Shown piece by piece: positions 4,566 to 36,605 of a stretch of 64,000 nt of DNA (position 1 is its first letter; each line of letters opens with the position of its first letter). This DNA comes from Sulfuriflexus mobilis (GTDB lineage: Bacteria; Pseudomonadota; Gammaproteobacteria; AKS1), in the NCBI RefSeq assembly GCF_003967195.1, contig NZ_AP018725.1:2972001-3036000 (forward strand). Reading direction: 5' to 3'. The notes under the pieces were generated by a model. The model ran no database searches. It was given only the letters and a program-made list of their open reading frames with translations, and was not told the origin of the DNA. The translations under genes and the position numbers were made by a program.

Positions 4566-4580
4566 CTACTGCTCCAAGCT

Positions 4581-4656
4581 GCCTCGAACCATCGGAGATG
4601 GTTGAGGTACTCACAATGAACCCGTAGGGTTCTGTGAGCATCAACTTTCAACCTAG
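4581..4656 (+). repeat. Twin-hairpin element, copy A (forward)
   Basis: Hairpin 1 (4582-4607) has outer arms CCTC/GAGG, inner arms AACCATC/GATGGTT, loop GGA, and a single unpaired G between arms on the 5' side. After TA, hairpin 2 (4610-4638) has outer arms CTCACA/TGTGAG, inner arms GAACCC/GGGTTC, loop GTA and an unpaired AT on the 5' side. The stretch AACTT..AACCTAG at 4643-4656 recurs downstream of copy B. Bases 4581-4617 are identical to 25241-25277. The copy lies between yqeY and dnaG, inside an operon, with no T-tract after it. Confidence 0.85.
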
Positions 4657-4769
4657 CCAGTAATATTTTCTTTGCTTGGCATACAAATAATCACTTTTCT
4701 TTACAATCTGTGTCCAATTGCACACAAGTTATACTGACTGACATGGCAACTCGGCTTACACTCTAGGTT

Positions 4770-6545
4770 ATGGGCGGGAAGATTCCACAGGGTTTTATCG
4801 ATGACTTACTCGGTCGCATCGACATCGTCGATGTCATCGACACACGCGTGCCATTGAAAAAGAAGGGCAAGGACTTCATGGCCTGTTGCCCCTTTCACAC
4901 TGAAAAGAGCCCGTCTTTCAGCGTCAGCCAGGACAAACAGTTTTATTATTGCTTCGGTTGCGGTGCCTCCGGCAGCGCGCTCGGCTTTCTCATGGACTAT
5001 GAGCATATGGGCTTTGTCGAGGCCATCGAGTCCCTCGCGGCCACGGCCGGCATCGACGTACCACGTGAAGAAGGCGACAACGACACGCCACGACAAAACT
5101 ACCAGCCACTCTACGATGTGCTAGATGCCTCCTCCAAATTTTACCGTGACCAGTTGCGCAGCCACCCGCAGGCGCAGCGCGCCATTGACTACCTGAAGAA
5201 TCGTGGCCTGAGCGGCGACATCGTCACCGCCTTCGGCATTGGCCTTGCCCCACCCGGCTGGGACAACCTGATCAAGCACATCGGCGATGATGCCGCGAAA
5301 CAGGACAGCCTGACGGCCTCGGGCATGGTCATCGACAAGGGCGACAAGCGCTATGACCGCTTTAGGGATCGCATCATGATCCCCATACTCGATCGTCGTG
5401 GCCGTTGCATCGCCTTTGGCGGCCGCGTGCTCGAGCCGGACGAAAAAGGCGCCAAGTACCTGAACTCACCCGAGACGCCCATCTTCCACAAGGGCCGCGA
5501 ACTCTATGGCCTCTATCAGGCCCGCAAGGCCCTGCGTGATATCCCGCGCCTGCTCGTCGTTGAAGGCTATATGGATGTGATCGCCCTGGCGCAATACGGC
5601 ATCCGCTACGCCGTGGCCACACTCGGCACCGCGACTACCGCCGAACACCTCGAACAGGTGTTCCGCACCGCGCCCGAGGTGGTGTTCTGCTTTGATGGCG
5701 ACCGCGCCGGCCGGGCCGCTGCCTGGCGGGCCCTGGAAAATGCCCTGCCGGTGATCCGTGAGGGCCGTGAGGCCAAGTTCCTGTTCCTGCCCGAGGGCGA
5801 AGACCCGGATACCTATGTGCGCCAGCATGGCCGCGAGGGGCTGGAGAAAAAGATCGCTGAGGCCAAACCTTTTTCCCGTTTTCTGCTTGAAAATCTCTCT
5901 GCACAGGCCGATATACACAGCATTGATGGTCGCGCCAAGCTGGTCGAACTGGCGCGGCCCCTGTTTGCCAAGCTCAGCGCCGGTGTCTACCGTGACATGC
6001 TCGTGACAGAACTGGCGCGCATTGCCGATATGGATGCCGACCGCCTGACCTCACACCTGTTCAACCAGCGTACCGGGGTGGTCGAACCACCCACCCGGCG
6101 TCCGCAACGCCAGGCTGCCGTGGCACGGCCGGGCAATAGCCTGGTCACCCGTGCTATCCGTTGCCTGTTGCAGCAACCCGCACTGGGCAGTGTGGGCGGG
6201 GATGCCAAACGCCTGCTCGCCGCCGGGGAACCGGGCGTGGCCTTTTTGGTCGAATTGCTTGAATTATTGCAGGCCAAGCCGCATTTAAATACCGCAGCGG
6301 TTATTGAACACTGGCGCGACCAGCCGATTGCGCAACGCCTGCAGGCCCTGGCCGCCCCCGATATCGCACTGGCCGACGCAGGGGCGCTGGAAACGGAATT
6401 TCTACACACCCTGGCCCGTCTGGATGAACAGGCCGCGCGGCGGCAGAAAATGGCACATATTGAGAACGTGAAATCAAAACGATTTGACGAGCTCACCGAG
6501 GATGAGAAAAAAGCATTCAGAAATCAGATAGTTAATGATTCCTGA
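4770..6545 (+). CDS. dnaG: DNA primase DnaG
   Basis: DnaG makes the RNA primers for chromosome replication and is recruited by the DnaB helicase. In the 591-residue protein the N-terminal zinc site is C40, H43, C61, C64. The TOPRIM catalytic part carries VVEGYMDV and FCFDGDRAGRAA near the middle, giving the acidic metal-binding residues. A C-terminal helicase-binding region follows from about residue 440. Length is normal. The ATG at 4770 has only a weak ribosome binding site. It is separated from yqeY by 204 bases that hold twin-hairpin copy A. Confidence 0.98.
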   Translation: MGGKIPQGFIDDLLGRIDIVDVIDTRVPLKKKGKDFMACCPFHTEKSPSFSVSQDKQFYYCFGCGASGSALGFLMDYEHMGFVEAIESLAATAGIDVPREEGDNDTPRQNYQPLYDVLDASSKFYRDQLRSHPQAQRAIDYLKNRGLSGDIVTAFGIGLAPPGWDNLIKHIGDDAAKQDSLTASGMVIDKGDKRYDRFRDRIMIPILDRRGRCIAFGGRVLEPDEKGAKYLNSPETPIFHKGRELYGLYQARKALRDIPRLLVVEGYMDVIALAQYGIRYAVATLGTATTAEHLEQVFRTAPEVVFCFDGDRAGRAAAWRALENALPVIREGREAKFLFLPEGEDPDTYVRQHGREGLEKKIAEAKPFSRFLLENLSAQADIHSIDGRAKLVELARPLFAKLSAGVYRDMLVTELARIADMDADRLTSHLFNQRTGVVEPPTRRPQRQAAVARPGNSLVTRAIRCLLQQPALGSVGGDAKRLLAAGEPGVAFLVELLELLQAKPHLNTAAVIEHWRDQPIAQRLQALAAPDIALADAGALETEFLHTLARLDEQAARRQKMAHIENVKSKRFDELTEDEKKAFRNQIVNDS

Positions 6546-6570
6546 AAGATGGACGATCACAGACTACACT

Positions 6571-6599
6571 GTGTAAAACGTCCGTATTTGGACTATAAT
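6571..6599 (+). promoter_or_regulatory. Candidate promoter of rpoD
   Basis: A perfect TATAAT lies at 6594-6599, between dnaG and rpoD. No good -35 hexamer is seen at the expected distance (about 6571-6576). A small hairpin CCCGG/CCGGG with loop TTTA follows at 6615-6628 in the presumed leader. The main sigma factor may thus have its own promoter besides read-through from dnaG. Confidence 0.5.
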
Positions 6600-6668
6600 A
6601 GTTCGTTTAATATCGCCCGGTTTACCGGGTAGTGGTAAGACACACGTACTTTTACAAGGCATATCGAC

Positions 6669-8504
6669 ATGGCAATGGATAAGGAAACACAACAATCTCA
6701 GCTTAAAGCACTGATTGCGAAGGGAAAGGAACAGAGTTACCTGACCTACGCTGAGGTTAATGATCACCTGCCAAACGAGATCGTCGATCCGGATCAGATC
6801 GAGGGTATCATCAGCATGATCACCGACATGGGTATCACCGTACAGGAGTTTGCCCCGGATGCGGACAGCCTTGTCATGTCAGATCAGGCCGTCAGCGCCG
6901 ATGACGATGCCAGTGAAGAGGCCGCTGCCACGCTCGCCACCGTCGATGCCGAATTTGGTCGCACCACCGACCCGGTACGTATGTACATGCGCGAAATGGG
7001 CGCCGTTGAGCTGCTGACCCGTGAGGGTGAAATCCGCATCGCCAAGCGTATTGAAGAAGGCATGAACCAGATGCTCTCTGCGCTGGCCACCTACAGTGAC
7101 ACCATTGCCACCCTGCTCACAGAGGCCGACCGCTTCGAACGTGAAGAGACCCGCTTAACCGATATCCTCACCACCTTTATCGACCCGAACGCCCCGGACG
7201 TGATTGCCAAACCCGGCAATGCGCAGAGCAGCGCCGACGACAAAAAAGACGATGATGAGGAAGAAGAGGAAGTCGATACCGGTCCGGATCCGGAAGAGGC
7301 CAAGCAGCGTTTCGAGAGTATTCGCAAGCTCTACAAGCGTTACCTGAATGCCGTCAACAAACACGGCAACAAGGACGAAAAATGCCTGAAGATGCGCGAA
7401 CAGCTTTCTGCGCAGTTCATGGAAATCAAACTGGCACAGCGCCTGATCGATCGTCTGGTCAATGACCTGCGCGGCATGGTCGACCGCATACGCGCTCAGG
7501 AAAAGGTCATTATGAATATCTGCGTGGAAAAGGCTCGTATGCCACGCAAGGACTTCATTGTTTCCTTCCCGGAAAATGAAACCAATCCTGAGTGGCTGGA
7601 AAAATTGCTGAAGTCCAGCAAGCCGTTTGCCAAGGTCCTGAAGGAACATGAGGACGAGATCCTGCGTGCGCAGAAGAAACTGATTGGACTGCAGGAAGAA
7701 TCCAACATGACCATTGGCCAGATCAAGGACATCAATCGCAAGATGTCTATCGGTGAGGCCAAGGCACGTCGTGCGAAGAAGGAAATGGTTGAGGCCAACC
7801 TGCGTCTGGTGATCTCGATTGCGAAGAAATACACCAACCGCGGCCTGCAGTTCCTCGACCTGATTCAGGAAGGCAACATCGGCCTGATGAAGGCTGTCGA
7901 CAAGTTTGAATACCGCCGTGGTTACAAGTTCTCGACCTATGCCACCTGGTGGATTCGCCAGGCCATTACGCGTTCGATTGCCGACCAGGCCCGTACCATC
8001 CGTATCCCGGTACACATGATTGAAACCATCAACAAACTGTCGCGTATCTCGCGGCAGATGGTGCAGGAAATGGGCCGTGAGCCGACACCGGAAGAACTGG
8101 CTGAACGCATGGAAATGCCGGAAGACAAGGTTCGCAAGGTCATGAAGATCGCCAAGGAACCGATCTCCATGGAAACCCCGATCGGTGATGACGAAGACTC
8201 ACACCTCGGTGACTTCATTGAAGACGGTAATGCCCTGCTGCCACTGGATTCAGCGACTATCGAAGGCCTGCGTGAAGCCACCCAGGATATTCTCGACGGC
8301 CTAACCGCACGTGAAGCCAAGGTCTTGCGTATGCGTTTCGGTATCGACATGAATACCGACCATACACTGGAAGAAGTCGGCAAACAGTTTGACGTTACCC
8401 GTGAGCGTATCCGTCAGATCGAGGCCAAGGCCCTGCGTAAGCTGCGTCACCCGAGCCGCTCGGAACAGTTGCGCAGCTTCCTTGACCAGCAGACCGGTTC
8501 GTAA
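6669..8504 (+). CDS. rpoD: RNA polymerase primary sigma factor RpoD (sigma-70)
   Basis: RpoD directs RNA polymerase to housekeeping promoters. The 611 residues include region 1.1 at the N terminus, region 1.2 ([10 protein letters not shown]), a non-conserved acidic insert around 185-205 ([14 protein letters not shown]), region 2 with the core-binding and -10-recognition segment ([20 protein letters not shown]), region 3, and region 4 with the -35 helix-turn-helix ([20 protein letters not shown]). Length is typical. A strong terminator follows at 8532. Confidence 0.98.
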
Positions 8505-8531
8505 GCGTACCCAGCAGAAGCCGAAGAAAAT

Positions 8532-8562
8532 AAAGGCCTGTCCGCAAAGACAGGCCTTTTTT
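8532..8562 (+). terminator. Rho-independent terminator after rpoD
   Basis: An 11-bp stem AAAGGCCTGTC/GACAGGCCTTT with a six-base loop is followed by a T-tract, 28 bases after the rpoD stop codon. Confidence 0.9.
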
Positions 8563-8607
8563 CATACACAAGCTTTTAAAAATATTGCTACAATAACGCC
8601 TGTTCAG

Positions 8608-8684
<77 letters not shown>

Positions 8685-8687
8685 AAT

Positions 8688-8719
8688 AAAAGGCACAGCT
8701 TGTTTGCTGTGCCTTTTTT
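8688..8719 (+). terminator. Terminator after the tRNA
   Basis: A 12-bp stem AAAAGGCACAGC/GCTGTGCCTTTT with loop TTGTTT continues into a T-tract, starting four bases after the CCA end of the tRNA. Confidence 0.9.
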
Positions 8720-8904
8720 GTTTTCATTTACTCGCAGGACGCTCTATTAAGTCCGCAAGAATGCACAATTCGTAGTGTATTTATGCCCCCGCATACGACT
8801 ACATATTTTTAACGGTCATTATTGATCCCATGTGACACATACCATCCATGTAGGCTATAGTCTATAAATACGTATAGCGTTATTCTGATAAATGTCTATT
8901 ATTA

Positions 8905-11004
8905 ATGCCTACTAAATTACAACGATGGCTTTATTGGCTGACGGGTGTTCTTGCCGGCATTGTGATTTTGTTTGTTACCTCGATTGCCCTCATACCTGCT
9001 ACAACCATCTGGTTGGCCACTGGATGGCTCGAAGATCGGGGTGTACACAGCTCGATCGAGGATGTCAGCATTAACCTGTTTAATGGCCAGGTAAGAGTCT
9101 CCGGTTTTCAGGCAATTGGCCCGAACAAGAAGAAAATCAATCTCAGTGAATTATTTGTCTTTTTAAATATAAAAGATCTGTTCGACCATAAAATCACCAT
9201 TGAAAAAGTCGAGTTTTCAGATTTCTATATTGATGTTCATCAGGAAACAGGAAAAACGTTAAGGTTCGGTGATATTGATTTTTCGCAAATCACGGACAAA
9301 CAATCAACAACAGATCAAGACTCTACGCCATGGCCCGTTATTATAAAAGATATCGGATTCAGGAATTTCAAAACCTGTTACCAGCTATATAGCCACGAGG
9401 GTAAATCGCTCTATAACAATTGCCTTGCACTGGGTAGTTTTTCCGTGGATGGACAATCAAGTTACATTATAGATAAAAAAGCCGGTCAAAAAGACCTTGG
9501 TCTGTTGGCAAACTTATCCTTTGTTTTAAAGAATATTACATTACATGACAATCCTGATGATGCCGACGTGGTTACTATCGGCACCATGAAGGTCAATGGC
9601 TTGACGCTCAATGGATTAAATAACATTGATGTAGAATCCATTAATATCAACGACCTTGCTGTTTTGGAACTTAAAAGTTCTGATTCAGCAACCTTGAATA
9701 ATAAACACGTCGCCTCAGTTAATAGTATTGCTGTCACTGATTTAAGTATTTTGCATACCAACAACTACCTGATTTCTGATATTGCTATTGATGGCCTGAA
9801 TACTTACCTGTTTCGTAAAAAAGATGGAGAGCTTGGATTTTCTGAAAGGATAAAAAAACTTTTCCATCCCGAGACAGTACATCAATCGAAGATTGATACA
9901 ACAGAACCTGACCCGGCGATTTTCAAAATCAATAATTTGTCTATTCAAGGTGATTCTAAGATTGCCATTAAAGATGATCGAGTCACACCATCCTATGTTG
10001 GGGTAGCCCGCGATATTAGTTTACAGTTAAGCCAGATAGATTCCTCTGACATCAACAACAAAAGTCCGATCTTACTATCAGCTATTGCAGGGGAGCATGG
10101 AAAAATTAATTTCAATGGTGAAATAGTTCTGTTCGCAAAACGCCCTACCGGTAATTTAAAAGGGTCTATTCAAGGAGTGAATGCTGCAGACTTTTCAGCT
10201 TATTTGAGTGATGCTCTTCATCACAATATTAAGAGTGGTTACATGGATGCGGATATCGCACTTGCTGTGGATCAGGGAAAACTTGATTCCACATTTAATT
10301 TTATCTTCCACAAATTTTATCTGGAGGAATCAGATCAAGGCACCTCAAAAGAATATACGGAAAAATTAGGTATCCCTCTTACACAGGCATTAAAACTACT
10401 CCGGAATAAAGATGGTAGTATCTATCTTAAATTACCCGTAACGGGTGATATTGAAAGTCCGGAATTTTCATTTAAAAATACGATAAACAAGGTCATTCTG
10501 GATTCAATCAAATATGCCGTTATTAACTATTACACACCTTTTGGCATTGTTACTCTGGGAACAAAAGTCTTTAATCTCGCTACAGCACTTCGCTTTGAAC
10601 CCATCAAGTTTGAGGCCGCTGATACCGAACTGGACAGTAGTGACACAGGACAACTTGATAAACTTGCCATACTCCTTAATGAGCGGCCAGGTGTACATCT
10701 AATTTTATGTGGCCAGTCAACAATCGCTGATCGTATAACGATCTTTTCTATAGATAGCGCGTTAATGGATAAAGCTCGAAAGTCTGCAGCTGATGAGAAA
10801 ACGGCGATCACGGCTATCGCTAACTTGTTACCTGCCGCCAGTCAATCTGAAATCACGCAATTGGTGAACCTGGCCATTCAACGGGGTAAAAATGTCCGCG
10901 ACTACCTGTCGAAAAATAATGGCATTGACCCTTCCCGGTTGATTATGTGTAATCCAACATATACCAATGATACACAGGCACCCAGGGTAGAGATTTCAAT
11001 TTAG
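8905..11004 (+). CDS. DUF748 (AsmA-like) membrane-anchored protein
   Basis: The 699-residue protein starts with one membrane segment (about 11-33) and continues as a long beta-rich domain with the DUF748 pattern (VSINLFNGQVRVSGFQ, then VEFSDFYIDVHQ). The C-terminal part (FEAADTELDSSDTGQLDKLAILLNERPGVHL in shorter recognisable blocks) fits the end of this family. Such proteins belong to the AsmA-like group, linked to the envelope and possibly lipid movement; the role here is unknown. The gene is visibly richer in A and T than its neighbours and starts 220 bases after a tRNA, so it may have been acquired. The start lacks a clear ribosome binding site. Confidence 0.75.
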   Translation: MPTKLQRWLYWLTGVLAGIVILFVTSIALIPATTIWLATGWLEDRGVHSSIEDVSINLFNGQVRVSGFQAIGPNKKKINLSELFVFLNIKDLFDHKITIEKVEFSDFYIDVHQETGKTLRFGDIDFSQITDKQSTTDQDSTPWPVIIKDIGFRNFKTCYQLYSHEGKSLYNNCLALGSFSVDGQSSYIIDKKAGQKDLGLLANLSFVLKNITLHDNPDDADVVTIGTMKVNGLTLNGLNNIDVESININDLAVLELKSSDSATLNNKHVASVNSIAVTDLSILHTNNYLISDIAIDGLNTYLFRKKDGELGFSERIKKLFHPETVHQSKIDTTEPDPAIFKINNLSIQGDSKIAIKDDRVTPSYVGVARDISLQLSQIDSSDINNKSPILLSAIAGEHGKINFNGEIVLFAKRPTGNLKGSIQGVNAADFSAYLSDALHHNIKSGYMDADIALAVDQGKLDSTFNFIFHKFYLEESDQGTSKEYTEKLGIPLTQALKLLRNKDGSIYLKLPVTGDIESPEFSFKNTINKVILDSIKYAVINYYTPFGIVTLGTKVFNLATALRFEPIKFEAADTELDSSDTGQLDKLAILLNERPGVHLILCGQSTIADRITIFSIDSALMDKARKSAADEKTAITAIANLLPAASQSEITQLVNLAIQRGKNVRDYLSKNNGIDPSRLIMCNPTYTNDTQAPRVEISI

Positions 11005-11093
11005 TCGTAATATATCAGGCCGGTAGTCTTTATTTAGCTGGATGGTTTGCAGTTTCACCTTCCTGCCAGATTCTGCTCCGCCTCACAGCTCGA

Positions 11094-11948
11094 TTATTCG
11101 TGAAAACCCCATACGGACAAAAGCAGGCGCGTCAGGTCGGTGTATTCGCTTTCCTTTACTGCAACGAAATTCTTGCTACGGAAGCGATTCAAAACCGGCT
11201 GTGGTCCCGGCTTACCCTCGCTGTCTAATAAGGCAAGGCGAATCTTTTCACGCGTAGCGGCATCGACACGCTTTGATATGGAAAATGTACGCGGTGGCAG
11301 GGGTTGCTTGTTTGTTGAATAGAGCAGTCTAAGGCCCTTGGTCTTGCCTGCCTTTTCAAACTTCTTCCAGAATGCGACTGGCAGGATCGCTGCATCCGCC
11401 TTGCCATCTTTCAGGCACTGCATGGAATCCTTGAAACTACGCTGTGCGACGATCACCGGCTGGCGAACCGGATTCGGAAAGGCGTCCAGCACCATGAGGG
11501 TGGCGAGGTTGGGCGAGTTTACCGCGCAGACCTTCTTTCCAACCAGTTCCTTGATATCTTTGATCGTGCCGCCATCCTTCACCGCTGCCATAAACACCAG
11601 CTCACCGGGGATACGCGCCAGGGGTATATGCCCGGTGTGTTGCATACGCCAGCTGACAAAATGTGGCCCATCAAAGATGATATCGAACTCATCCTTGCGC
11701 ATCTTGCTCGTGTATTCGAGGAAGTTGCGCACCGGTACCAGCTTTACCTGTTTGCCACTGGCCTGTGACAGGTACTCGGCTAATGGCCCATAGAGTTTGT
11801 GTGTATCAGCCACCGACTGGGTGGGGGCCGTGGTCATGGTGATGACACCTGGTTCGGCCGCCGCTGCCCATGCCGGTAACAAGGACGTGCATAGCAACAG
11901 GGCCATGCGGAAAATCTTCAGCTTTAAGCAGCAAATTGCCTTCGACAC
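11094..11948 (-). CDS. PhnD-like periplasmic substrate-binding protein
   Basis: This 284-residue protein resembles PhnD/SsuA-type binding proteins of phosphonate, phosphite or phosphate ABC transporters. A signal peptide ends near residue 30 (LLLCTSLLPAWAAAAEPG). The family pattern is seen in YGPLAEYLSQASGKQVKLVP, DIIFDGPHFVSWR and GKKVCAVNSPNLAT. The GTG at 11948 is favoured because AGGAG lies 8 bases upstream; an internal ATG at 11906 is possible. No permease or ATPase gene is nearby, so it may be a sensor or orphan receptor. It is divergent from an RND efflux operon, with 212 bases between starts. Confidence 0.85.
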   Translation of the reverse strand: MSKAICCLKLKIFRMALLLCTSLLPAWAAAAEPGVITMTTAPTQSVADTHKLYGPLAEYLSQASGKQVKLVPVRNFLEYTSKMRKDEFDIIFDGPHFVSWRMQHTGHIPLARIPGELVFMAAVKDGGTIKDIKELVGKKVCAVNSPNLATLMVLDAFPNPVRQPVIVAQRSFKDSMQCLKDGKADAAILPVAFWKKFEKAGKTKGLRLLYSTNKQPLPPRTFSISKRVDAATREKIRLALLDSEGKPGPQPVLNRFRSKNFVAVKESEYTDLTRLLLSVWGFHE

Positions 11949-12160
11949 TGGTCATACTCCTGGAATATGGCGGTTATTATTGTTTATTCTGGGCAACCGC
12001 CTCGTCCCCGATTATGGCAAAAAGCCACTAACAGTGAAACCATCCTCACACAAATCAGTCATATCAGGCATGGCCTGTATCCGTTGGGTGGACTTACCCC
12101 CCTGCCTGAAAGATCATACAATTAGTCCCTAATTTACCAGGATTTCCTGCCTGGCACAGG

Positions 12161-13249: not shown

Positions 13250-13260
13250 AGGAAACACGC

Positions 13261-16425: not shown

Positions 16426-16499
16426 AGACGCTCTCTTGCCATGTACTGGTAAAGCGCCTACTGTATATTAATAGCTGACAATAAACTTTGGAGTGCATC

Positions 16500-16841
16500 A
16501 TGGCCACACCTGAAATAAAGGATGACCACCTCTACCGCTTGTTACGCGAAGGCAAGATCGGAGACTTTAACCATGCCTGTGCCAGTGGAGAACAGCCTGA
16601 CCTGAGTAATTGTGATATGCGTGGTCTTAGCCTGAAGGGGCTGAATGCCGATGGCCTCGACCTGCGTGGCTGTTATTTTCGCCAGGCCGACTTGCGTGGT
16701 ATTGACTTTAGCAAGGCCAATCTTGAGGGTGCCAGTATTCATGCGGCAAAGATTTCCGGCTGCCTGTTCCCGACTACTCTCAGTGCCGATGAGATCAACC
16801 TGTCACTCACACATGGCACCCGCATGCGTTATCAGCGCTAG
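16500..16841 (+). CDS. Small pentapeptide-repeat protein
   Basis: The 113-residue product has a short pentapeptide-repeat region (about 40-90) with the A(D/N)LXX rhythm: LSNCDMRGLSLKGLNADGLD, then FRQADLRGIDFSKANLEGAS. Such repeats fold into a right-handed beta helix; the function of this small form is unknown. The ATG at 16500 was chosen because GGAG lies 6 bases upstream. It overlaps the convergent gene by 4 bases. Confidence 0.8.
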   Translation: MATPEIKDDHLYRLLREGKIGDFNHACASGEQPDLSNCDMRGLSLKGLNADGLDLRGCYFRQADLRGIDFSKANLEGASIHAAKISGCLFPTTLSADEINLSLTHGTRMRYQR

Positions 16842-18676: not shown

Positions 18677-18743
18677 CTCCAGAAGTAATTATTTATTATA
18701 TGACAACAGGGAGGCGGGGTTTATTCCCGGTTGATGCCGGAAA

Positions 18744-27510: not shown

Positions 27511-27838
27511 GTCCGTTCTCCTGATTATCCTTGTTTCGTCTCAATGTCTCGAATGACGAAGACCTTTATGGGTAAATATCCTACAGGTATCACCTGTAGT
27601 CTCCGACAGCCAACAGCGACCGTCACGTGCATACTACACCTCGTCAATCTCCTTCCAAAAGAGCGACGTTACCGAACCCGGCCCTCCTTGGCCGGGTTTT
27701 TTTCTAGTGTCAGTTGTTCTGTATTACTGACACTTATGAGTACTTTATTATGCCCGTGTTATACCATGGCAGAGGGTGGCTGCATGCACTGCGATAAGGG
27801 GACAATAATATAAAGCGGATCCAGGCAGGGCGAATGGC
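27511..27838. other. Intergenic region with three hairpins and no gene
   Basis: This 328-base gap lies between two minus-strand genes. It holds a hairpin CTACAGGT/ACCTGTAG with loop ATC (27581-27599), a terminator facing the plus strand (27675-27703), and an inverted repeat AGTGTCAGT/ACTGACACT with an 11-base loop (27706-27734). No convincing small protein gene was found. Confidence 0.7.
27675..27703 (+). terminator. Plus-strand terminator without an upstream plus-strand gene
   Basis: Nine-bp stem AACCCGGCC/GGCCGGGTT, loop CTCCTT, then seven T. On the minus strand the hairpin is not followed by T, so it should act on plus-strand transcripts. No plus-strand gene is annotated upstream. Confidence 0.8.
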
Positions 27839-29224: not shown

Positions 29225-29369
29225 TCAGATCCTACAAATTACTTAATACAATCATTCTAATTGATTATTATTACAGGGGTTATTGATTTTCACAAGGCCT
29301 TACATACATTATTAAAGGGGGCATTTCTGGGGTGAGTCTGGCCCGAGTACTATCCGGGTCATCGCGGTA

Positions 29370-30521
29370 TTAACGCCAGCGGTGGCGATCCAGCCAGTTG
29401 GCGACCTTCGACCAGAAATATTGCTGTAGACGGGTCAAGGTATTGCGTTGTTGCCAGGCCGACAGCGCCAGGGCCCGGCTCTGCTCAAAATCGGTGATAA
29501 ACTGTCGACAGACCTGTTCGGCAAACCCCGCCGAGTGTATGGCCAGATTCGCCTCAAGGTTCCAACGCAGGGTCCAGCGGTCAAAATTGCTCGAGCCCAT
29601 GGTCACCCAGTCATCACAGAGCAGAATCTTGCTATGCAAGACCTGCGGCTGGTACACATAGATCTTCACACCCTTACGCAGCAGACCGGCGTAGTGGCGC
29701 TGTCCCGCCAGGTTCACCGCCGGGTGATCCGACTTCCCCGGCACCAGCAGACGCACATCGACACCACGTCTTGCCGCCAGCAACAGGGCACGTCGCAGGC
29801 GGCGTACCGGGATAAAATACGGTGTCGACAGCCATACCTGTCGCCTGGCCTGGCCGATCGCCCGCATCACACTACTGCGAATCGCCTGGCCACCAAAACC
29901 ATAACCCACCAGCAACTGTGCAGGCACATCGCCCCTGGCCAAATCCGCATCCCGGAATTGCTCCGCGGGACCAACCCCGGTCAGTTGCTGCCAAAGACGA
30001 TCAAACACCTGCTGACAATCGAGCAGTACCGGTCCCTGGATCGCCAGCATGGTTTCACGCCAGGCCGGGGCCTGCCCACGTTCGATAAAGGCATCGGTGA
30101 TCCCGGTCCCACCAGTAAAACCGTAGTGGGCATCAATAAGCAGGAATTTACGGTGATCCCGGGCGATATTTTTTTTCCAATGAGACAGGGGGTACCAGCG
30201 CAAGGGGTTATAAAAGACCAGTTCAATCCCGGCGTGACGAATTTGTTCGCGGTCACGTAGCGCCAGGCCACGCGCGCCAAAATCATCCAGCAATAAACGT
30301 ACGTGGACATCCCGCTCGACCGCGGCACTCAGCGCCTGGATAAAATCCGTGGCCACCTGTCCGGATTCAAACAGGTACATCTCCAGACAAATCGACTCTT
30401 GTGCGGCCTTGATCGCCGCCAGCATGCGTGGCAAGAACACCTTGCCATTAATCAGCAACTCAAACTGGTTGCCCTCGCGAAGGGGAAAATGGCTCGCCAT
30501 CGATTTCTTTTTGCCCGTCAT
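29370..30521 (-). CDS. Cardiolipin synthase-like phospholipase D protein (ClsB type)
   Basis: The protein, about 383 residues, has two HKD motifs of the phospholipase D superfamily: HRKFLLIDAHYGFTGG (near 134) and HSKILLCDDWVTMGSSNFD (near 310). The N-terminal membrane helices of ClsA are absent, as in ClsB. It probably joins phosphatidyl groups to form cardiolipin at the inner membrane. The ATG at 30521 was chosen over a TTG two codons upstream because AGG lies 7 bases before it. A small membrane-protein gene ends 8 bases upstream. Confidence 0.88.
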   Translation of the reverse strand: MTGKKKSMASHFPLREGNQFELLINGKVFLPRMLAAIKAAQESICLEMYLFESGQVATDFIQALSAAVERDVHVRLLLDDFGARGLALRDREQIRHAGIELVFYNPLRWYPLSHWKKNIARDHRKFLLIDAHYGFTGGTGITDAFIERGQAPAWRETMLAIQGPVLLDCQQVFDRLWQQLTGVGPAEQFRDADLARGDVPAQLLVGYGFGGQAIRSSVMRAIGQARRQVWLSTPYFIPVRRLRRALLLAARRGVDVRLLVPGKSDHPAVNLAGQRHYAGLLRKGVKIYVYQPQVLHSKILLCDDWVTMGSSNFDRWTLRWNLEANLAIHSAGFAEQVCRQFITDFEQSRALALSAWQQRNTLTRLQQYFWSKVANWLDRHRWR

Positions 30522-30529
30522 GGACAAGC

Positions 30530-30727
30530 CTAGCCATTACGCGCCATGTAGATCAGCAGAATAATAAACAACACCATCCCGCCGATCGGCAGCAGGAAAC
30601 CCGCCCAGTCTTTTTTCGCCTGTTGGCTGCGCTCCCAGGTGGCCTTAATACCGGGACGGAACAGAAAGATCAGGCCCACGACCAAAACGCCGATTAAGAG
30701 TTTTTCCCAGAGCTCCAGTGCCTGCAT
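30530..30727 (-). CDS. Small two-helix membrane protein
   Basis: The 65-residue protein has two hydrophobic helices (about 9-25 and 43-61) joined by a basic loop with the segment RPGIKATWERSQQAKKDW. I do not recognise a named family. It is directly upstream of the cardiolipin synthase homologue and probably shares its transcript, which suggests a membrane-related role. Confidence 0.7.
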   Translation of the reverse strand: MQALELWEKLLIGVLVVGLIFLFRPGIKATWERSQQAKKDWAGFLLPIGGMVLFIILLIYMARNG

Positions 30728-30752
30728 GTATAATCTCCTGTCTATCTAGCGA

Positions 30753-30783
30753 GTTAACACAGACTCACAACGAGTCCGTTAAC
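30753..30783 (+). promoter_or_regulatory. Nested inverted repeat before the DUF2797 gene
   Basis: GTTAAC at 30753-30758 and 30778-30783 flank a second inverted repeat, GACTC/GAGTC (30762-30766 and 30772-30776). It stands in the divergent region 26 bases before the DUF2797 start and may be an operator or leader hairpin. Confidence 0.4.
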
Positions 30784-30808
30784 CATCATAACGAGGTCGG
30801 AGTAAACA

Positions 30809-31633
30809 ATGAAGCTTGCCGGTCACTTGCGCAAGATGCGCGTTAGCCTGGAGTCACCCGTTACCTACACCCTACTGGTCGATAATGAGGCCGAGACTCT
30901 TAATCCGCATGTCGGCAAACGCCTGCGCATGGCATATAGCGGCGATATTCACTGCCTCGCCTGTGGTCGCAAAACCAGCAAGAGTTATAGCCAGGGACAT
31001 TGCTACCCCTGTTCACAAAGCCTGGCCTCCTGTGACCTGTGCATCATGAAGCCGGAGACCTGCCACTACGCGGCCGGCACCTGTCGTGAACCGCAATGGG
31101 GTGAACAAAACTGCATGCAGGCCCACTACGTCTACCTGGCCAATTCCTCTGGTATCAAGGTCGGCATTACCCGCGCGCCGCAAATTCCCACGCGCTGGAT
31201 TGACCAGGGTGCCAGCCAGGCCCTGCCGATCTTTCGCGTCTCACACCGCTACCTCTCAGGCCTGGTCGAGGTCGCCATGAAAGACCATGTCTCGGACCGC
31301 ACAGACTGGCGTCGTATGCTCAAGGGTGCACCGGAGGCCGTGGACCTGGCGGCACAGCGTGATGCCCTGTTTACGCAGACCCGTGATGCCGTGCAGGCAC
31401 TGGCAAGTCGCTTTGATGACAATGCCATCGAATGGCTTGATAACGCGCCGATCGTCGAAATCGACTATCCGGTGCATGCCTACCCCGACAAGGTCCGCTC
31501 ACTGAACTTTGACAAGACGCCGCTCATCGAAGGCACCCTGCAGGGCATCAAGGGACAATACCTGCTCCTTGATACCGGTGTATTGAATATCCGTAAGTTT
31601 GCCGGTTATTATGTCGAGGTAGAACTCGATTAA
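30809..31633 (+). CDS. DUF2797 cysteine-rich protein
   Basis: This 274-residue protein matches the DUF2797 family, of unknown function. The N-terminal third is rich in Cys in zinc-site spacing: CLACGRKT, then GHCYPCSQ, CDLCIMKPETC, and single Cys in AGTCREP and QNCMQAH. A segment YVYLANSSGIKVGITR (near 110-125) looks like the start of a GIY-YIG-type fold; this is my reading. The ribosome binding site GGTCGGAG precedes the ATG. Confidence 0.85.
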   Translation: MKLAGHLRKMRVSLESPVTYTLLVDNEAETLNPHVGKRLRMAYSGDIHCLACGRKTSKSYSQGHCYPCSQSLASCDLCIMKPETCHYAAGTCREPQWGEQNCMQAHYVYLANSSGIKVGITRAPQIPTRWIDQGASQALPIFRVSHRYLSGLVEVAMKDHVSDRTDWRRMLKGAPEAVDLAAQRDALFTQTRDAVQALASRFDDNAIEWLDNAPIVEIDYPVHAYPDKVRSLNFDKTPLIEGTLQGIKGQYLLLDTGVLNIRKFAGYYVEVELD

Positions 31634-31705
31634 AAACGCCGGGATGACCTAAGCGATTAGGGGCAGGGACGCCCGGGCAGAGGGCTATCACTAATGGAGG
31701 AGAGT

Positions 31706-32038
31706 ATGTCTGAAGGTCATCCTGAACCGGCACACAACAAACGTGTATTTCCGCGCATGGTGGCGACATGCCCGGTGCTCTACCGTACCCATGAAGAAGA
31801 ACGCTGGTGCGTGGGCATGTTACTCGACTTTTCAGCCACGGGTGTGCTCATGACCTGCAACCGAGACCTCCCGATCGGCACCTTGATCAGCCTGCGCCTG
31901 GAGCGCGGCCGTCATCGCGACCTGCCGGCCCTGAGCGGCTCGGGCAACATCGTTCGTTGTGACAAGCTCTCGATAGTAAAATATGAAGTGGCCTGCAAAC
32001 TGACTCACATCGACCCACCTGACAAGGCCGGCAGCTAG
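31706..32038 (+). CDS. PilZ-domain protein
   Basis: The 110-residue product is a single PilZ domain. It carries RVFPRMVATC in place of the usual RxxxR start and DFSATGVLM for the (D/N)xSxxG motif, which together suggest c-di-GMP binding, although the first motif is not canonical. The ATG at 31706 has GGAGG five bases upstream; an ATG at 31694 overlaps that site. A diguanylate cyclase that could supply the ligand lies at 40.5 kb. Confidence 0.85.
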   Translation: MSEGHPEPAHNKRVFPRMVATCPVLYRTHEEERWCVGMLLDFSATGVLMTCNRDLPIGTLISLRLERGRHRDLPALSGSGNIVRCDKLSIVKYEVACKLTHIDPPDKAGS

Positions 32039-32077
32039 CCTGATACCGGCCCTTTATAGCAGCCATTGGCGAAGACC

Positions 32078-32794
32078 CTAGTTAACCGATAAGTGGCTGG
32101 TGTCGATTTGGGCCGGCGGGACCTCTTCGCCCTCCACCAGTCGTACCCCCGGGGCATCCATAGACATGCTGTTAGTATCAATGTTGGCCGGCGGGGTCTG
32201 ACTCGGCTCGACCAGGGTAATACCCACCTCGGCCATGTCTATGCCGTTAGTATCAATGTCGGCCTCGATCACGTCCTCGTGCTCGGCCAGTTGTACACCG
32301 GGCTCGGCCATATCCATACTGCCGATATCAATGTTCGCCTCCGGCACAATCTGTTGCTCGACCAGTTGCACACCAGGCGCGGCCATATCCATACTGCCGG
32401 TATCAATGTTCGCCTCCGGCACAACCTGCTGCTCGACCAGTTGCACACCGGGCGCGGCGATACTAATGGCTGATGATGGGGCTTCTGACGGCGCGGTTTG
32501 TGGGGTGACAGGGCCAGTCGCGGGAATGACGGTCTCTGCCTTGGCGGGTGCCTGGCCCGACGACATGTCCTGCACTTCGCAGATCGCACCGGCGCGCAGC
32601 ATGGTGGACTGGTATTTTTCGGCCATCGCCTGGTCGACCTGTTTTTTCAGGATCAGGCGTCTGCCACAAAAGAGTTTATCAACCTGCTCGGGTGCCAGCT
32701 TAAACAGGCGCGCCACATTGCCCTTGACCATATCAAGCTCGGCACCATCGATAATGCGCCCACTGAAGATCACCTGATATTGCCCTTCTGCCAT
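32078..32794 (-). CDS. Protein with five 25-residue tandem repeats
   Basis: Residues 1-85 of this 238-residue protein form a compact domain (YQVIFSGRIIDGAELDMVKG, then FCGRRLILKKQVDQAMAEKY) seen at the start of various gammaproteobacterial membrane or signalling proteins. After a linker, residues 112-238 hold five repeats of about 25 residues with the pattern APGVQLVE..(V/T)PPANIDT.SMDM; the last ends IDTSHLSVN. No membrane segment or catalytic motif is seen. Function unknown. It follows the Hpt gene on the same strand. Confidence 0.75.
   Translation of the reverse strand: MAEGQYQVIFSGRIIDGAELDMVKGNVARLFKLAPEQVDKLFCGRRLILKKQVDQAMAEKYQSTMLRAGAICEVQDMSSGQAPAKAETVIPATGPVTPQTAPSEAPSSAISIAAPGVQLVEQQVVPEANIDTGSMDMAAPGVQLVEQQIVPEANIDIGSMDMAEPGVQLAEHEDVIEADIDTNGIDMAEVGITLVEPSQTPPANIDTNSMSMDAPGVRLVEGEEVPPAQIDTSHLSVN
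32306..32455 (-). repeat. 75-bp tandem duplication in the repeat-protein gene
   Basis: Bases 32306-32380 and 32381-32455 are nearly identical at the DNA level, differing at only a few positions, and each encodes one 25-residue repeat. The near-identity points to a recent duplication; the outer repeats are more diverged. Confidence 0.85.
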
Positions 32795-32891
32795 TTTCGC
32801 TCCAGTTTAAGTTTTCTTGAGGTTTATTCGTCTCTGAGGAAAATAGTAGTCACTGGCTGGGCATTTATCAATCTGTAATGCGATAGGTCGC

Positions 32892-33686
32892 TTACTGGCT
32901 ATGTTGGGTCTTGATGATTTTCTCAACCGTCTGTGAAATCGCTGTCGACATATTGGCATCTTTTTTAATGACATAATCAGGGTCACTATCACGCCCGCAA
33001 GACTCAAGGTCTTTCGAGGTTAATAACACGCTGGGGATATTATGATTACGCCGCTTTGACAAGCGTAATGCGGTGATCATGGCAAAACCATTGAGATCGG
33101 GCAGCTCCATATTAGAAATAATAAAGTCGAAGTTTTCATGCAACAACCTGCCCAATGCATGATAACCACTTTCGGCAAATGATAAGGTCACCGTGTCATT
33201 ATCCAGGGCGGATATACACATCTGCTGGTGCAGGCCCGGGGCCATTACCAGCAGCCCACTAAACTGGTAGTCACAGCCCTTGCCGCGTAGCTTATCCAGC
33301 TCGTCTTCAATAACGGTAAAGTCTTCACCGCCGGTATTGATCAAGTCGAGTGTTTGTCGCAAGACATCGATAAAACGCAGCCACACCACCACCTTGTCAT
33401 GATTGAGCAAAGACTGTTTGTCCTCGACCTTGACGATCTCGTCTTCAAGGGCATGACAAACTGTTGAGATGATCGGCAACCCATGGGTACCGGCACTGCC
33501 TTTGATACTGTGCACATGGCGATAGAGTGACTCGTACTGCTCGGTGAATGCCGCACTCTTCTCCAGTTCGAGGATTATCCCCTCCACCTCCCCAAGCCGC
33601 GAGGGTAACTCGGTGACAAAGTCAGCACGCAACAATGCCAACATCTTGCTGACATCCGGGGAGGGAGTTTTGCTTTTATCAACCAT
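32892..33686 (-). CDS. Hpt phosphotransfer protein with a degenerate receiver domain
   Basis: The 264-residue protein begins with an Hpt domain whose phospho-acceptor is in HVHSIKGSAGTHGL (near residue 57). The second half (about 140-260) has a receiver-like fold, LLVMAPGLHQQ to VIKKDANMS, but where the acceptor Asp is expected it reads IISNMELPDLNGF, with Asn. The receiver should thus not be phosphorylated in the normal way. It may relay phosphate from a kinase outside this window; the partner is unknown. Confidence 0.85.
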   Translation of the reverse strand: MVDKSKTPSPDVSKMLALLRADFVTELPSRLGEVEGIILELEKSAAFTEQYESLYRHVHSIKGSAGTHGLPIISTVCHALEDEIVKVEDKQSLLNHDKVVVWLRFIDVLRQTLDLINTGGEDFTVIEDELDKLRGKGCDYQFSGLLVMAPGLHQQMCISALDNDTVTLSFAESGYHALGRLLHENFDFIISNMELPDLNGFAMITALRLSKRRNHNIPSVLLTSKDLESCGRDSDPDYVIKKDANMSTAISQTVEKIIKTQHSQ

Positions 33687-33834
33687 TAACTGACTCTAGT
33701 ACAAGGTTATAAGACCGACAACGAGGCCGCCCCCTATATTATCGACGGACAGGCGAGAGACTTTAAATAACTCTATTATTTTTTTTATGGCTTTTAGCCT
33801 GCCGGACATTTTTTTTCGATAAACTATACAGACG

Positions 33835-35037
33835 ATGCGCGACTACAAACACTTTCACTACGGCCTTATCACACTATTGTACTGGTTGTTCACCCTCAGC
33901 GATGGCGCGTTGCGCATGCTGGTATTGTTGTACTTTCACCAGCTGGGTTTCGATGCCTTGCAGATTGCCTCACTGTTTCTCTTCTACGAAGTCTTTGGCA
34001 TCGTCACCAACCTGGCCGGGGGCTGGATTGCCGCGCACACGGGGCTGCGCCTGACCCTGTATGCCGGGCTTGGTCTGCAGGTGATCGCACTGGGTATGCT
34101 CGGCCTGATGGATCAGGCCTGGTCGCAGGGGCTACTCATAGTCTATGTCATGGTTGCCCAGGCCCTGTCCGGGATCGCCAAAGACCTGACCAAGATGAGT
34201 GCCAAGAGCGGTGTCAAGCTGGTGGTGGAGAGTGATCGGCCCGGTCACCTCTATCACTGGGTGGCCCTGCTTACCGGCTCAAAAAATGCCCTGAAGGGCC
34301 TCGGTTTCTTCCTCGGCGGCCTGCTGCTTTCGACGATCGGCTTCCAGGCCAGCCTCTTCAGCATGGCCGCGGTCCTGCTCGCCGGCCTGCTCATTCTTGC
34401 CCCGGCGCTGCCAGGTGAATGGGGACAGGCCAGTCGCAAACCGAAATTCAAACAACTTTTCTCAAAGAGCCATGAGATTAACCAGCTGTCTGTGGCCAGA
34501 TTCTTTCTGTTTGCGGCACGGGATGTCTGGTTTGTCGTTGGCCTGCCGCTTTATCTGGCACAACAGCTGAACTGGTCACCACCCCAGGTCAGTGGCTGGC
34601 TGGCGACCTGGGTGATCGGCTATGGCGTCGTCCAGGCCATGGTGCCGCGCTTTATCCGGCGCGGCCAGCACCCGCATGGCGGCACGGCCTTGAAGGTGCT
34701 CGGCTGGTTGATCCTGAGTCTCGGCCTGTTGCTGGCCTTGCTGCAGTCCGGTCTCTCCCCGGCACTGGCCATTTTTGTCGGTCTGGCCTTGTTCGGCATT
34801 GTCTTTGCCATCAACTCCGCCATCCACTCTTACCTGATACTGGCCTATGCCGAACATGACGGGGTTACACTGGATGTGGGTTTTTACTATATGGCCAATG
34901 CCGCCGGCCGTCTGCTCGGTACGATCCTGTCGGGGCTATTGTTTACACAGTTTGGGCTGACCGGCTGTCTGCTCGGCGCTGTGGGCCTGCTGCTCGGTGC
35001 GCTGGCCTTTAGCCTGCGCCTGCCGCGCGCCCCTTAA
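33835..35037 (+). CDS. arsJ: ArsJ-type MFS efflux transporter
   Basis: The 400-residue, twelve-helix protein matches the ArsJ family, which exports 1-arseno-3-phosphoglycerate. Recognisable segments are TLSDGALRMLVLLYFHQLGF, FLFYEVFGIVTNLAGGW, ALSGIAKDLTKMSAKSGVKL, LTGSKNALKGLGFFLGG and ARFFLFAARDVWFVVGLPL. ArsJ normally works with a GAPDH-like enzyme encoded beside it, and no such gene or arsR is near. Its function may thus have changed, or the partner may be encoded elsewhere. Confidence 0.85.
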   Translation: MRDYKHFHYGLITLLYWLFTLSDGALRMLVLLYFHQLGFDALQIASLFLFYEVFGIVTNLAGGWIAAHTGLRLTLYAGLGLQVIALGMLGLMDQAWSQGLLIVYVMVAQALSGIAKDLTKMSAKSGVKLVVESDRPGHLYHWVALLTGSKNALKGLGFFLGGLLLSTIGFQASLFSMAAVLLAGLLILAPALPGEWGQASRKPKFKQLFSKSHEINQLSVARFFLFAARDVWFVVGLPLYLAQQLNWSPPQVSGWLATWVIGYGVVQAMVPRFIRRGQHPHGGTALKVLGWLILSLGLLLALLQSGLSPALAIFVGLALFGIVFAINSAIHSYLILAYAEHDGVTLDVGFYYMANAAGRLLGTILSGLLFTQFGLTGCLLGAVGLLLGALAFSLRLPRAP

Positions 35038-35552
35038 CTCTGGCGGGCCGGACCAAAATTAAAGCCCACTGACAGGCGCATCTGCTGGCTCAGATTTTTG
35101 CTCACGGCGTGAGGCATGTCGGGGGGGAAACATACCAGTCGGCCGGCATGCGGACTCAGTGTATAAGGCCCCGTCTGCGATTCCAGGATCAGGTCACCGG
35201 AGCCCTGCGGGGCGGTCACGTAATAGACAGCAGAGAGACGCTCATCGTCATCATCGTGGGTATGTATCTGGGTGCTCTGTCCGGGTGACATGGCGTTAAA
35301 CCAGAATCCCGCCTGCAAGGCTTGTGGGTCGCCGAGAAATACCTGCGCGGCAGCAATCGCCTGCTCGATGACGTTTGCCATCGCCGGCACCTGCTCGGTG
35401 CCCAGATAGATATTCTCAAACCGACCATCAATAAAGTGACTGCGCTGGACGTCGGCATCACCCTGGTGAAGCATGAAATCACGCAGGATGTCACGATTCA
35501 GCATCTCGGTCCCGACCAGTTCCTGAATAAAGACACCCTTGGGCAGTGGCAT
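35034..35552 (-). CDS. Putative 2OG-Fe(II) oxygenase
   Basis: The 172-residue protein has the iron- and 2-oxoglutarate-binding pattern of small 2OG oxygenases: HxD in QIHTHDDDDERLSAVYYV, the distal His in FPPDMPHAVSKN, and an Arg in QQMRLSVGFNF for the co-substrate. The substrate is unknown. The 3' end overlaps the convergent arsJ gene by 4 bases. Confidence 0.82.
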   Translation of the reverse strand: MPLPKGVFIQELVGTEMLNRDILRDFMLHQGDADVQRSHFIDGRFENIYLGTEQVPAMANVIEQAIAAAQVFLGDPQALQAGFWFNAMSPGQSTQIHTHDDDDERLSAVYYVTAPQGSGDLILESQTGPYTLSPHAGRLVCFPPDMPHAVSKNLSQQMRLSVGFNFGPARQS

Positions 35553-35554
35553 GT

Positions 35555-35755
35555 TTACAGTCCCAGTAACTCGACGAGTATGGATTTGGCGATTACGCCA
35601 ACAAAGCCCAGTCCCAGGCCAATAAACAGGATGATAAATCCATAGCGACCCGCCTTGGACGCCTCACCCAGTTTATAAATAATATATAGCATATAGAGGA
35701 TCAGCCCACCGACGCAGATGATCAGGGCATACTCTTCGAATACTTCAATACTCAT
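35555..35755 (-). CDS. DUF2788 small membrane protein
   Basis: The start was placed at the ATG at 35755, giving 66 residues with two membrane helices (about 9-26 and 38-62), as in the DUF2788 family. The longer frame to 35956 adds 67 residues unlike any membrane protein and was rejected. The gene ends 2 bases before the start of the oxygenase gene, so the two are probably co-transcribed. Function unknown. Confidence 0.82.
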   Translation of the reverse strand: MSIEVFEEYALIICVGGLILYMLYIIYKLGEASKAGRYGFIILFIGLGLGFVGVIAKSILVELLGL

Positions 35756-35972
35756 AGTTGCTATCCCACCGGGATGTTTGCCTCGACTGGACGGGCGGCC
35801 AGTATAGCATATTAGTAAACCCTTATATTCTCCTGAGGCCCTGACCTGTAACCACCCTGCCCCTGCTGCTATTCTGGGCACGAACCCCAGAGGACAGTAA
35901 CAGTCCCGGAACCAACAACCCGCAGACCTGTCAAAGCTTTTAGTTTTGCTACCCACACAGAGAAACTCCGAT

Positions 35973-36470
35973 ATGCCAAAAATAACCCTTGCAGCGATCT
36001 ACACGCTCCTCCTCGCCAGCCTGCTCGTGTTCGCCGCCAGCAGCCAGGCCGCCGGCCTGACGGATTTTACCGGGACACCGCGCAGCATTGAGGACTATAG
36101 CGGCAAGGGAAAATGGTTGGTGGTCATGTTCTGGGCCTCCGACTGCCATATCTGCGCCAGAGAGGCCCACGAATACGTGGCACTTCATGACAGGAACAAG
36201 GATGGTAATGCCCGCGTACTCGGCATCACCATCGATGGCCTTGCCAATAAAGAGGCGGCGCAGGGCTTTGTCGATGAGCACAAACTCAACTTCCCAAACC
36301 TTATCGGTAACGCCGAGGATATTGGCGCCATGTATTACGATATGACCGGCGAGTTCTGGGTCGGCACGCCCACCTTCTTCGTCTTTGACCCGACAGGCAA
36401 ACTGCGCGCGGCACAGGCCGGAGCGGTACCTGCCGAGGTCCTGGAAAGTTTTATTGCCGAGAACAGTTAA
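35973..36470 (+). CDS. Exported thioredoxin-like (TlpA/redoxin) protein
   Basis: The 165-residue product has a signal peptide (LLLASLLVFAASSQAAG) and a thioredoxin fold with WASDCHICAREAHEYV, a CxxC site (Cys-His-Ile-Cys). GTPTFFVFDPTGKLRAAQAG gives the cis-Pro region. It probably acts in periplasmic disulfide reduction. A TTG at 35946 is an alternative start. A 16-bp inverted repeat follows the gene. Confidence 0.88.
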   Translation: MPKITLAAIYTLLLASLLVFAASSQAAGLTDFTGTPRSIEDYSGKGKWLVVMFWASDCHICAREAHEYVALHDRNKDGNARVLGITIDGLANKEAAQGFVDEHKLNFPNLIGNAEDIGAMYYDMTGEFWVGTPTFFVFDPTGKLRAAQAGAVPAEVLESFIAENS

Positions 36471-36485
36471 AGAACAGTTAATATG

Positions 36486-36523
36486 GATTGATGCTTGATG
36501 ATCACCTTCATCAAGCATCAATC
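36486..36523. repeat. Perfect 16-bp inverted repeat between convergent genes
   Basis: GATTGATGCTTGATGA and TCATCAAGCATCAATC flank the six-base loop TCACCT. It is 15 bases after the thioredoxin-like gene and before the end of metH. No T-tract follows, so it is not a standard terminator, but it could block or stabilise transcripts from both sides. Confidence 0.85.
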
Positions 36524-36546
36524 TACGTCGGTCCCTCTCGCACTGT

Positions 36547-36605
36547 CTCATAGAACCCCTTTGGGTTTCATTATGAGTACCCTACCTATCTTCGATAGGT
36601 CAAGG
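36547..36605 (-). repeat. Twin-hairpin element, copy D (reverse)
   Basis: Reversed hairpin 2 at 36547-36577 has outer arms CTCATA/TATGAG, inner arms GAACCC/GGGTTTC (one extra T), loop CTTT and the AT bulge on the 3' side. After TA, reversed hairpin 1 at 36580-36605 has inner arms ACCTATC/GATAGGT, loop TTC, a bulged C and outer CCCT/AAGG with one mismatch. It stands between convergent genes. The flanks GTCCC/GGGAC and GCAC/GTGC could form an outer stem around it. Confidence 0.82.

What the first reader, a model, noticed from the sequence alone, without database searches (positions are those of the whole stretch)
4581..36605. A family of twin-hairpin repeats with conserved bulges and covarying stems
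Copies lie at 4581-4656, 21270-21432, 25241-25551 and 36547-36605, in both orientations. The unit is hairpin 1, TA or a similar short link, then hairpin 2. Hairpin 1 has a one-base bulge and a GGA/GAA-type loop. Hairpin 2 has a two-base AT bulge, and its inner arms begin GA and end TC. Stems change between copies but pairing is kept: hairpin 1 inner arms AACCATC/GATGGTT, ACCCACT/AGTGGGT, ACCTATC/GATAGGT, ACTCC/GGAGT; hairpin 2 inner arms GAACCC/GGGTTC, GAACCT/AGGTTC, GAAGCC/GGCTTC, GATGCCT/AGGCATC. The outer arms of hairpin 2 covary too. REP elements usually keep sequence; here structure is kept while sequence drifts. Two sites lie within operons and two between convergent genes.
Basis: seen in the sequence. 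Interest (0 to 1): 0.88.

Follow-up and report, generated by a model that had tools for sequence, protein, structure and literature searches.

The report
Twin-hairpin mobile DNA repeat family
A sulfur-oxidising bacterium and some of its relatives carry dozens of small two-hairpin DNA repeats whose shape is kept while their letters drift; they look like mobile hairpins that settle beside other hairpins, a new branch of a known kind of bacterial repeat.

Summary
All four sites hold a two-hairpin unit: H1 with a bulged G, link TA, H2 with a bulged AT. A covariance model finds 9 copies in the window, at least 87 in the genome (Sulfuriflexus by inference), and matches in 15 of 274 class genomes. 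Covariation survives a tree-based null: of 14 column pairs with E<0.5, 13 are pairs of the proposed structure and the 14th is the next pair inward of H2. Bulges and the bases beside them are kept while upper stems drift. GNA loops and the excess of G.T over A.C mismatches point to one folded strand.

Best reading: a REP/BIME-like family of non-autonomous single-strand DNA hairpins that often settle beside other hairpins: after terminator T-runs, in the AT bulge of another copy, in CGTC-type palindromes. It is neither GTAG- nor CGTC-tagged, and no Y1/RAYT partner was found linked: RAYT presence is not enriched in carriers, and complete carrier genome G096 has no Y1 match. The enzyme is unknown. 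New variant of a known kind.

The parts
4579..4640 (+). H1-H2 unit between yqeY and dnaG
   Evidence: 82.1 bits; fold
21266..21324 (+). H1-H2 unit between hisF and hisI, H1 shortened
   Evidence: 52.8 bits
21337..21401 (-). degenerate inverted unit, H2 recognisable
   Evidence: 21 bits, E=0.0018
21369..21434 (+). H1-H2 unit, divergent
   Evidence: 44.9 bits
25213..25240 (+). intrinsic terminator after ompW whose T-run abuts the outer unit
   Evidence: read; ompW by Pfam
25239..25276 (+). outer unit: H1 and 5' arm of H2, cut at the AT bulge by the nested unit
25277..25337 (+). nested H1-H2 unit
   Evidence: 77 bits
25338..25359 (+). rest of the outer H2 (AACCC..GGGTTC and degenerate 3' arm)
   Evidence: read
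25360..25430 (+). tail module GTGGTGAA..CATCGGAGATGG, also in other copies and congeners
25434..25494 (-). H1-H2 unit, divergent
   Evidence: 31.7 bits
25496..25555 (-). H1-H2 unit
   Evidence: 65 bits
36545..36608 (-). H1-H2 unit between an AhpC/TSA-family gene and metH
   Evidence: 73.3 bits

Best explanation
The units are copies of one non-autonomous, REP/BIME-like mobile DNA family. The working form is a folded single strand of DNA, the strand read H1 then H2. The bulged G of H1 and the AT bulge of H2, with the bases beside them, are the signal for a protein; the upper stems need only pair, so they drift with compensation. Copies were spread in trans and often placed beside other hairpins: right after the T-run of intrinsic terminators, into the AT bulge of an older copy, into CGTC-type palindromes. 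Nested and tandem insertion builds mosaics. Shown: the family, its structure, covariation, strand asymmetry, these contexts, presence/absence at two sites, and sharing of other sites between species. Inferred: movement as single-stranded DNA, recognition through the bulges, and a single kind of enzyme. The enzyme is not identified.
For: 87 used copies at 48 sites of the own genome; 15 of 274 class genomes. Covariation against a tree-based null. Among the best kept columns are the bulges and their neighbours: A9 2.0 bits, A38 1.85, T25 1.83, G8 1.78 (T39, the second bulged base, 1.40). Parsed triloops are GNA in 100 of 113 (H1) and 52 of 65 (H2), the complement TNC in 2 and 0; GNA and GNNA loops make very stable DNA mini-hairpins (PMC4686876 passages). 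G.T 104 against A.C 34 cells. T-run of 5 or more directly before the element in 37 of 186 copies, against 3.0% of 3033 TTGCC controls and 0.35% of 3997 random positions. 14 of 186 copies nested at the AT bulge. hisF-hisI spacer 27 bp in G001, 303 bp with three matches in the window; porin terminator empty in G001 and G002, filled in G003 and G000. Ten of ten fetched G096 copies lie in a CGTC-type palindrome. E. coli REP needs its bulge and is bound on one strand only, upper half non-specific (PMC8266576 passages).
Against: No transposase is linked; three of ten carriers searched (G096, G106, G110) have no Y1_Tnp match, nor has G067. No target duplication or exact junction was resolved. T-run preference is uneven: 23 of 56 copies in three congeners, 8 of 83 in the own genome, 1 of 21 in G048, 5 of 26 elsewhere. 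Of the 135 copies that are neither after a T-run nor nested, 28 (21%) have a strong hairpin just upstream, against 11% in both controls, so the hairpin rule holds for part of the copies only. No orientation bias between the two halves of the chromosome (13+/22- against 23+/23-, p=0.27, origin position assumed), which lagging-strand insertion would have predicted. Sharing of sites between species (17 of 40 flagged by script, 11 convincing by eye) can also mean retention for a function.
Confidence: 0.6

Rival explanations
1. The units work as RNA: structured 3' ends or intercistronic hairpins that protect, process or terminate transcripts, kept by selection on RNA structure and copied as useful cassettes.
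For: Sites lie mostly behind genes: 18 convergent, 23 co-oriented, 4 divergent, 1 unclear of 46 sites by mechanical ORFs, one of them (hisF-hisI) set wrongly as convergent. One-strand asymmetry fits RNA as well. 11 of 40 congener sites convincingly shared.
Against: 37 of 186 copies begin just after a terminator T-run, beyond the expected RNA end. Copies occur in both orientations. G.T is 3.5% of 2948 cells. GNA triloops favour DNA (inference; the weaker RNA form is recalled). No Rfam family matches.
Confidence: 0.2
2. The pairing is kept by mutation, not selection: template switching at hairpins rewrites one arm from the other, so covariation needs no function.
For: Template switching can create and mend hairpins with multi-base compensatory changes (PMC8794818 abstract). 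Inner stems of different copies often differ in several pairs at once.
Against: Bulges, which perfecting would tend to remove, are kept; loops stay GNA and almost never turn to the complement TNC, which inversion of the loop would give (2 of 113 and 0 of 65). Does not explain spread and insertion contexts.
Confidence: 0.12
3. A standard REP/RAYT system whose RAYT was lost from the own genome: the congener RAYT between rpiA and the porin is the partner.
For: All three congeners have the RAYT and the own genome has element copies in that slot. G003 has copies just upstream of it.
Against: G001 and G002 have no copy beside the RAYT; no enrichment in carriers; related RAYT of Thiohalophilus has its own GTAG repeats; G096 has copies and no Y1 match.
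Confidence: 0.08

Closest known systems
GTAG-tagged REPs with RAYT (REPtrons), e.g. E. coli REP, SMAG
   Same: Short imperfect extragenic palindromes in many copies, dimers and tandem clusters with flanking DNA, bulges, subfamilies with alternative complementary stems (PMC3733652 section 5; PMC8266576 passages).
   Different: No GTAG tag, no linked RAYT found, two unlike hairpins as a fixed unit, GNA loops, terminator T-run as a common neighbour.
CGTC-tagged REPs
   Same: Palindromic families that apparently lack a dedicated transposase; REP dimers inside target palindromes are reported (PMC3733652 passages).
   Different: The unit has no CGTC tag; the CGTC-type word is absent from the own-genome loci; in G096 the unit sits inside such a palindrome.
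BIMEs (bacterial interspersed mosaic elements)
   Same: Mosaics of several hairpin motifs in both orientations, with tandem amplification.
   Different: Nesting at the AT bulge, conserved tail module.
Double-hairpin and repetitive hairpin-forming elements of mitochondrial DNA
   Same: Two-hairpin repeats thought to be mobile (PMC2800124 passages).
   Different: In the sponge elements stems are said to be conserved and changes to lie in loops, the reverse of here; no link by descent shown.

Membership tests
REP/RAYT (GTAG type) | short palindrome in many copies, outside genes | tested here: met
   8 of 46 sites overlap a mechanical ORF, genes not curated
REP/RAYT (GTAG type) | terminal GTAG tetranucleotide | tested here: not met
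   conserved ends are TTGCC and GGTA; no GTAG column in the alignments
REP/RAYT (GTAG type) | RAYT gene flanked by the repeat | tested here: not met
   27 of 31 Y1 loci and 11 RAYT loci scanned; one RAYT locus has copies nearby, right after the porin terminator
CGTC-tagged REP | terminal CGTC | tested here: not met
   0 GTCATTGCGA in 233,540 bp of own-genome loci; G096 copies are inside such a palindrome
BIME | mosaic of several hairpin motifs in alternate orientations | tested here: met
Intrinsic terminator | hairpin directly followed by a T-run | tested here: not met
   T-run of 5 or more within 12 nt after H2 in 1 of 186 copies
Mitochondrial double-hairpin element | two adjacent hairpins in a mobile repeat of common descent | tested here: inconclusive
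   two hairpins met; descent not testable with these tools
Integron attC | core sites, integrase, cassette array | not tested
   considered only because of the extrahelical bases

The most novel reading that the evidence does not exclude
A hairpin-seeking DNA element whose insertion target is itself a folded hairpin (terminator, another palindrome, its own bulge, perhaps tRNA ends), moved by a single-strand DNA enzyme that is not a Y1/RAYT transposase.
Probability: 0.22. Interest if true: 0.75.

Novelty: new variant of a known kind. Interest (0 to 1): 0.5.

Why it matters
It adds a repeat family outside the GTAG and CGTC superfamilies, with a clear candidate recognition signature (bulges and GNA loops on one strand) and a target rule that can be tested. 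How REPs without a dedicated transposase spread is an open question (CGTC REPs, PMC3733652 abstract passage); complete genome G096, with copies and no Y1 match, is a place to ask it.

Tried and rejected
Linked gene by recurrence: ORFs of 90 aa or more in the element loci were clustered; the 25 largest clusters that I printed showed ordinary neighbours and orthologous neighbourhoods, no shared mobile gene (smaller clusters not looked at). Y1 genes: 27 of 31 held loci scanned, best E 0.067; one search lists more Y1 matches than it gave loci for. Phages and plasmids: no match with one 141-base query. Strict pattern in viral contigs: 0. Rfam: one tRNA over cut-off; at a lax E-value on 401 bases only matches below cut-off. 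DNA-uptake words were considered and dropped without a test, because the stems are not a fixed word. Lagging-strand bias: none seen.

Rows dropped. One search used 20 of the 22 units. One search used 138 after removing near duplicates from 178 of a set length, out of 186. One search printed only part of its matches, so the 63 sites come from those listed; one had no locus. One search had no locus for 2 of 48 sites and set hisF-hisI as convergent, corrected by Pfam. Copy number in the own genome is a lower bound: 150 of 1108 first-look candidates scored. One search scored 19 candidates a genome.

Checked late: the tRNA context holds for tRNA-Cys in L245 and tRNA-Pro in L050; in L299 and L300 (271 bases each) no tRNA was found, so that likeness is unverified.

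Papers: PMC3733652 sections 5 and 6 and passages; PMC8266576, PMC12306157, PMC2800124, PMC4686876 passages; PMC8794818 abstract and outline; all others search listings only. Recalled, from no call: the motifs by which I name the RAYT, that GNA loops are weaker in RNA, and the double-hairpin elements of Allomyces. That this family is not in print rests on searches and passages 71, 79; most subscription papers are not held.

Full report
WHAT IS THERE. The unit is two hairpins joined by TA. H1 has outer arms CC-YY/RR-GG, a bulged G, an A-T pair, a variable inner stem and a short loop. H2 has outer arms typically CTCAYR/YRTGAG, a bulged AT, a GAA/TTC collar, a short inner stem and a short loop. 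The window has nine model matches at E<=0.0018 at the four sites.

GENOME. The window is 2,972,001-3,036,000 of a 3,111,340-bp single-contig genome. The own genome has 97 matches at E<=0.1; I used 87, at 48 sites. Of 56 relatives 6 have matches at E<=0.001: G000 84, G001 20, G002 22, G003 14, G046 3, G048 26. Of 274 class genomes 15 have matches at E<=1e-6. A strict pattern in the collection of 84,980 species genomes gave 32 stretches, with titles Gammaproteobacteria, Sulfuriflexus, Thiohalophilus, Acidiferrobacteraceae or Chromatiales; records near the window's genome may be left out there.

COVARIATION. In 20 copies found with a pairing descriptor, 14 of 23 pairs changed on both sides, 0 of 500 shuffles as high; the descriptor inflates the paired fraction. 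The fairer test aligned 138 non-redundant copies by sequence alone, built a tree and reshuffled substitutions along it, 60 times. Of 1830 column pairs 14 reach E<0.5: 13 are pairs of the proposed structure, and the 14th (46-50) is the next pair inward of H2, canonical in 72%. Seven are at the floor of the null, E<=0.017. One of the 13 (43-53) is canonical in 61% only, the rest mostly G.A. In that alignment 2612 of 2948 cells are Watson-Crick. Template switching could add to this (PMC8794818).

WHICH STRAND. G.T mismatches outnumber A.C 104 to 34, and 78 to 29 without one pair that is often G.T; the model-fitted alignments gave 78 to 20. Copies are related, so the p-values are too small. Parsed triloops are GNA in 100 of 113 for H1 and 52 of 65 for H2, TNC in 2 and 0; 53 of 177 H1 and 71 of 177 H2 could not be parsed. 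Both point to the H1-to-H2 strand as the folded one. GNA and GNNA loops give very stable DNA mini-hairpins (PMC4686876), which I take as favouring DNA over RNA (inference). Predicted DNA folding energies of the two strands do not differ much, so the asymmetry is in the sequence record, not in those energies.

WHERE IT SITS. A T-run of five or more stands directly before the element in 37 of 186 copies, against 3.0% of 3033 TTGCC controls and 0.35% of 3997 random positions; in 32 of the 37 a strong hairpin lies just upstream. By genome: G000 8 of 83, G001 7 of 19, G002 8 of 22, G003 8 of 15, G048 1 of 21, others 5 of 26. 14 of 186 begin inside the AT bulge of another copy, as at 25277 in the window. 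In G096 ten of ten fetched copies lie within CGTCATTGCGA...GCAATCT palindromes, two of them with a changed base. In G046 a copy starts 2 bases after a tRNA-Cys gene, and the own genome has a seven-copy, 112-bp tandem array beside a tRNA-Pro gene that repeats its 3' end. Against a general rule: among the 135 copies of neither kind, 28 have a strong hairpin upstream, 21% against 11% in controls.

MOBILE OR KEPT. hisF-hisI has 27 bp in G001 and 303 bp with three matches in the window (hisI start set by eye). The porin terminator near rpiA is empty in G001 and G002 and filled in G003 and G000. On the other hand a script flagged 17 of 40 congener sites and 2 of 20 G048 sites as shared with the own genome, 0 of 2 in G046; I printed 14 of the 17, and 11 convince me. 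At several of them the terminators match while the elements differ at paired positions. That may be compensation in place, replacement by other copies, or repeated insertion at one terminator; I cannot separate these.

PARTNER. The three congeners share a 170-aa protein that resembles TnpA-REP between rpiA and a porin; the own genome lacks it at E<=1e-5. Across 274 class genomes it is found at E<=1e-20 in 81: 6 of 15 carriers and 75 of 259 others. G096 (complete), G110 and G106 have no Y1_Tnp match; the other seven of ten carriers have, as do 18 of 19. So it is not filed as a REP/RAYT system, although bulge, one-strand recognition and a non-specific upper stem in E. coli REP (PMC8266576) are what it works like.

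VERDICT. A new family, neither GTAG- nor CGTC-tagged, of REP/BIME-like hairpins with an unknown mobilising enzyme. Structure and covariation are firm; mobility is supported by presence/absence and nesting; the single-strand mechanism is inferred.

Noticed in passing
L050 1990-2724 (G000:C1:2378489-2379223): Seven tandem 112-bp repeats beside a tRNA-Pro gene, six with identical units, each repeating the last bases of the tRNA gene.
   Followed up: partly
L155, L156, L157; L056 1965-2440: A RAYT-like gene between rpiA and a porin in three Sulfuriflexus genomes is absent from the own genome, where twin-hairpin copies lie in that slot.
   Followed up: partly
L158 1200-2290: The Thiohalophilus RAYT is flanked by many GTAG-type repeats (TAGGCCCGATA...), a separate REP system.
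   Followed up: no
L018 1000-1930; L055 2090-4230: Another dispersed motif, CTGACCCC/GGGGTCAG, borders a Y1 gene and some twin-hairpin composites.
   Followed up: no
H2 pair, alignment columns 43-53: One H2 pair is G.A in 25 and A.G in 18 copies, a recurrent non-canonical pair.
   Followed up: no
L006, L052, L082; G000 1175224, 2038121: A further hairpin module (CCAGAACCTGCGGAGCAGGT) lies inside H2 of some copies, and a related one stands just before H1 of others.
   Followed up: partly
L299, L300 (G110): Left flanks resemble a tRNA 3' end, but no tRNA was found in the 271 bases held.
   Followed up: partly
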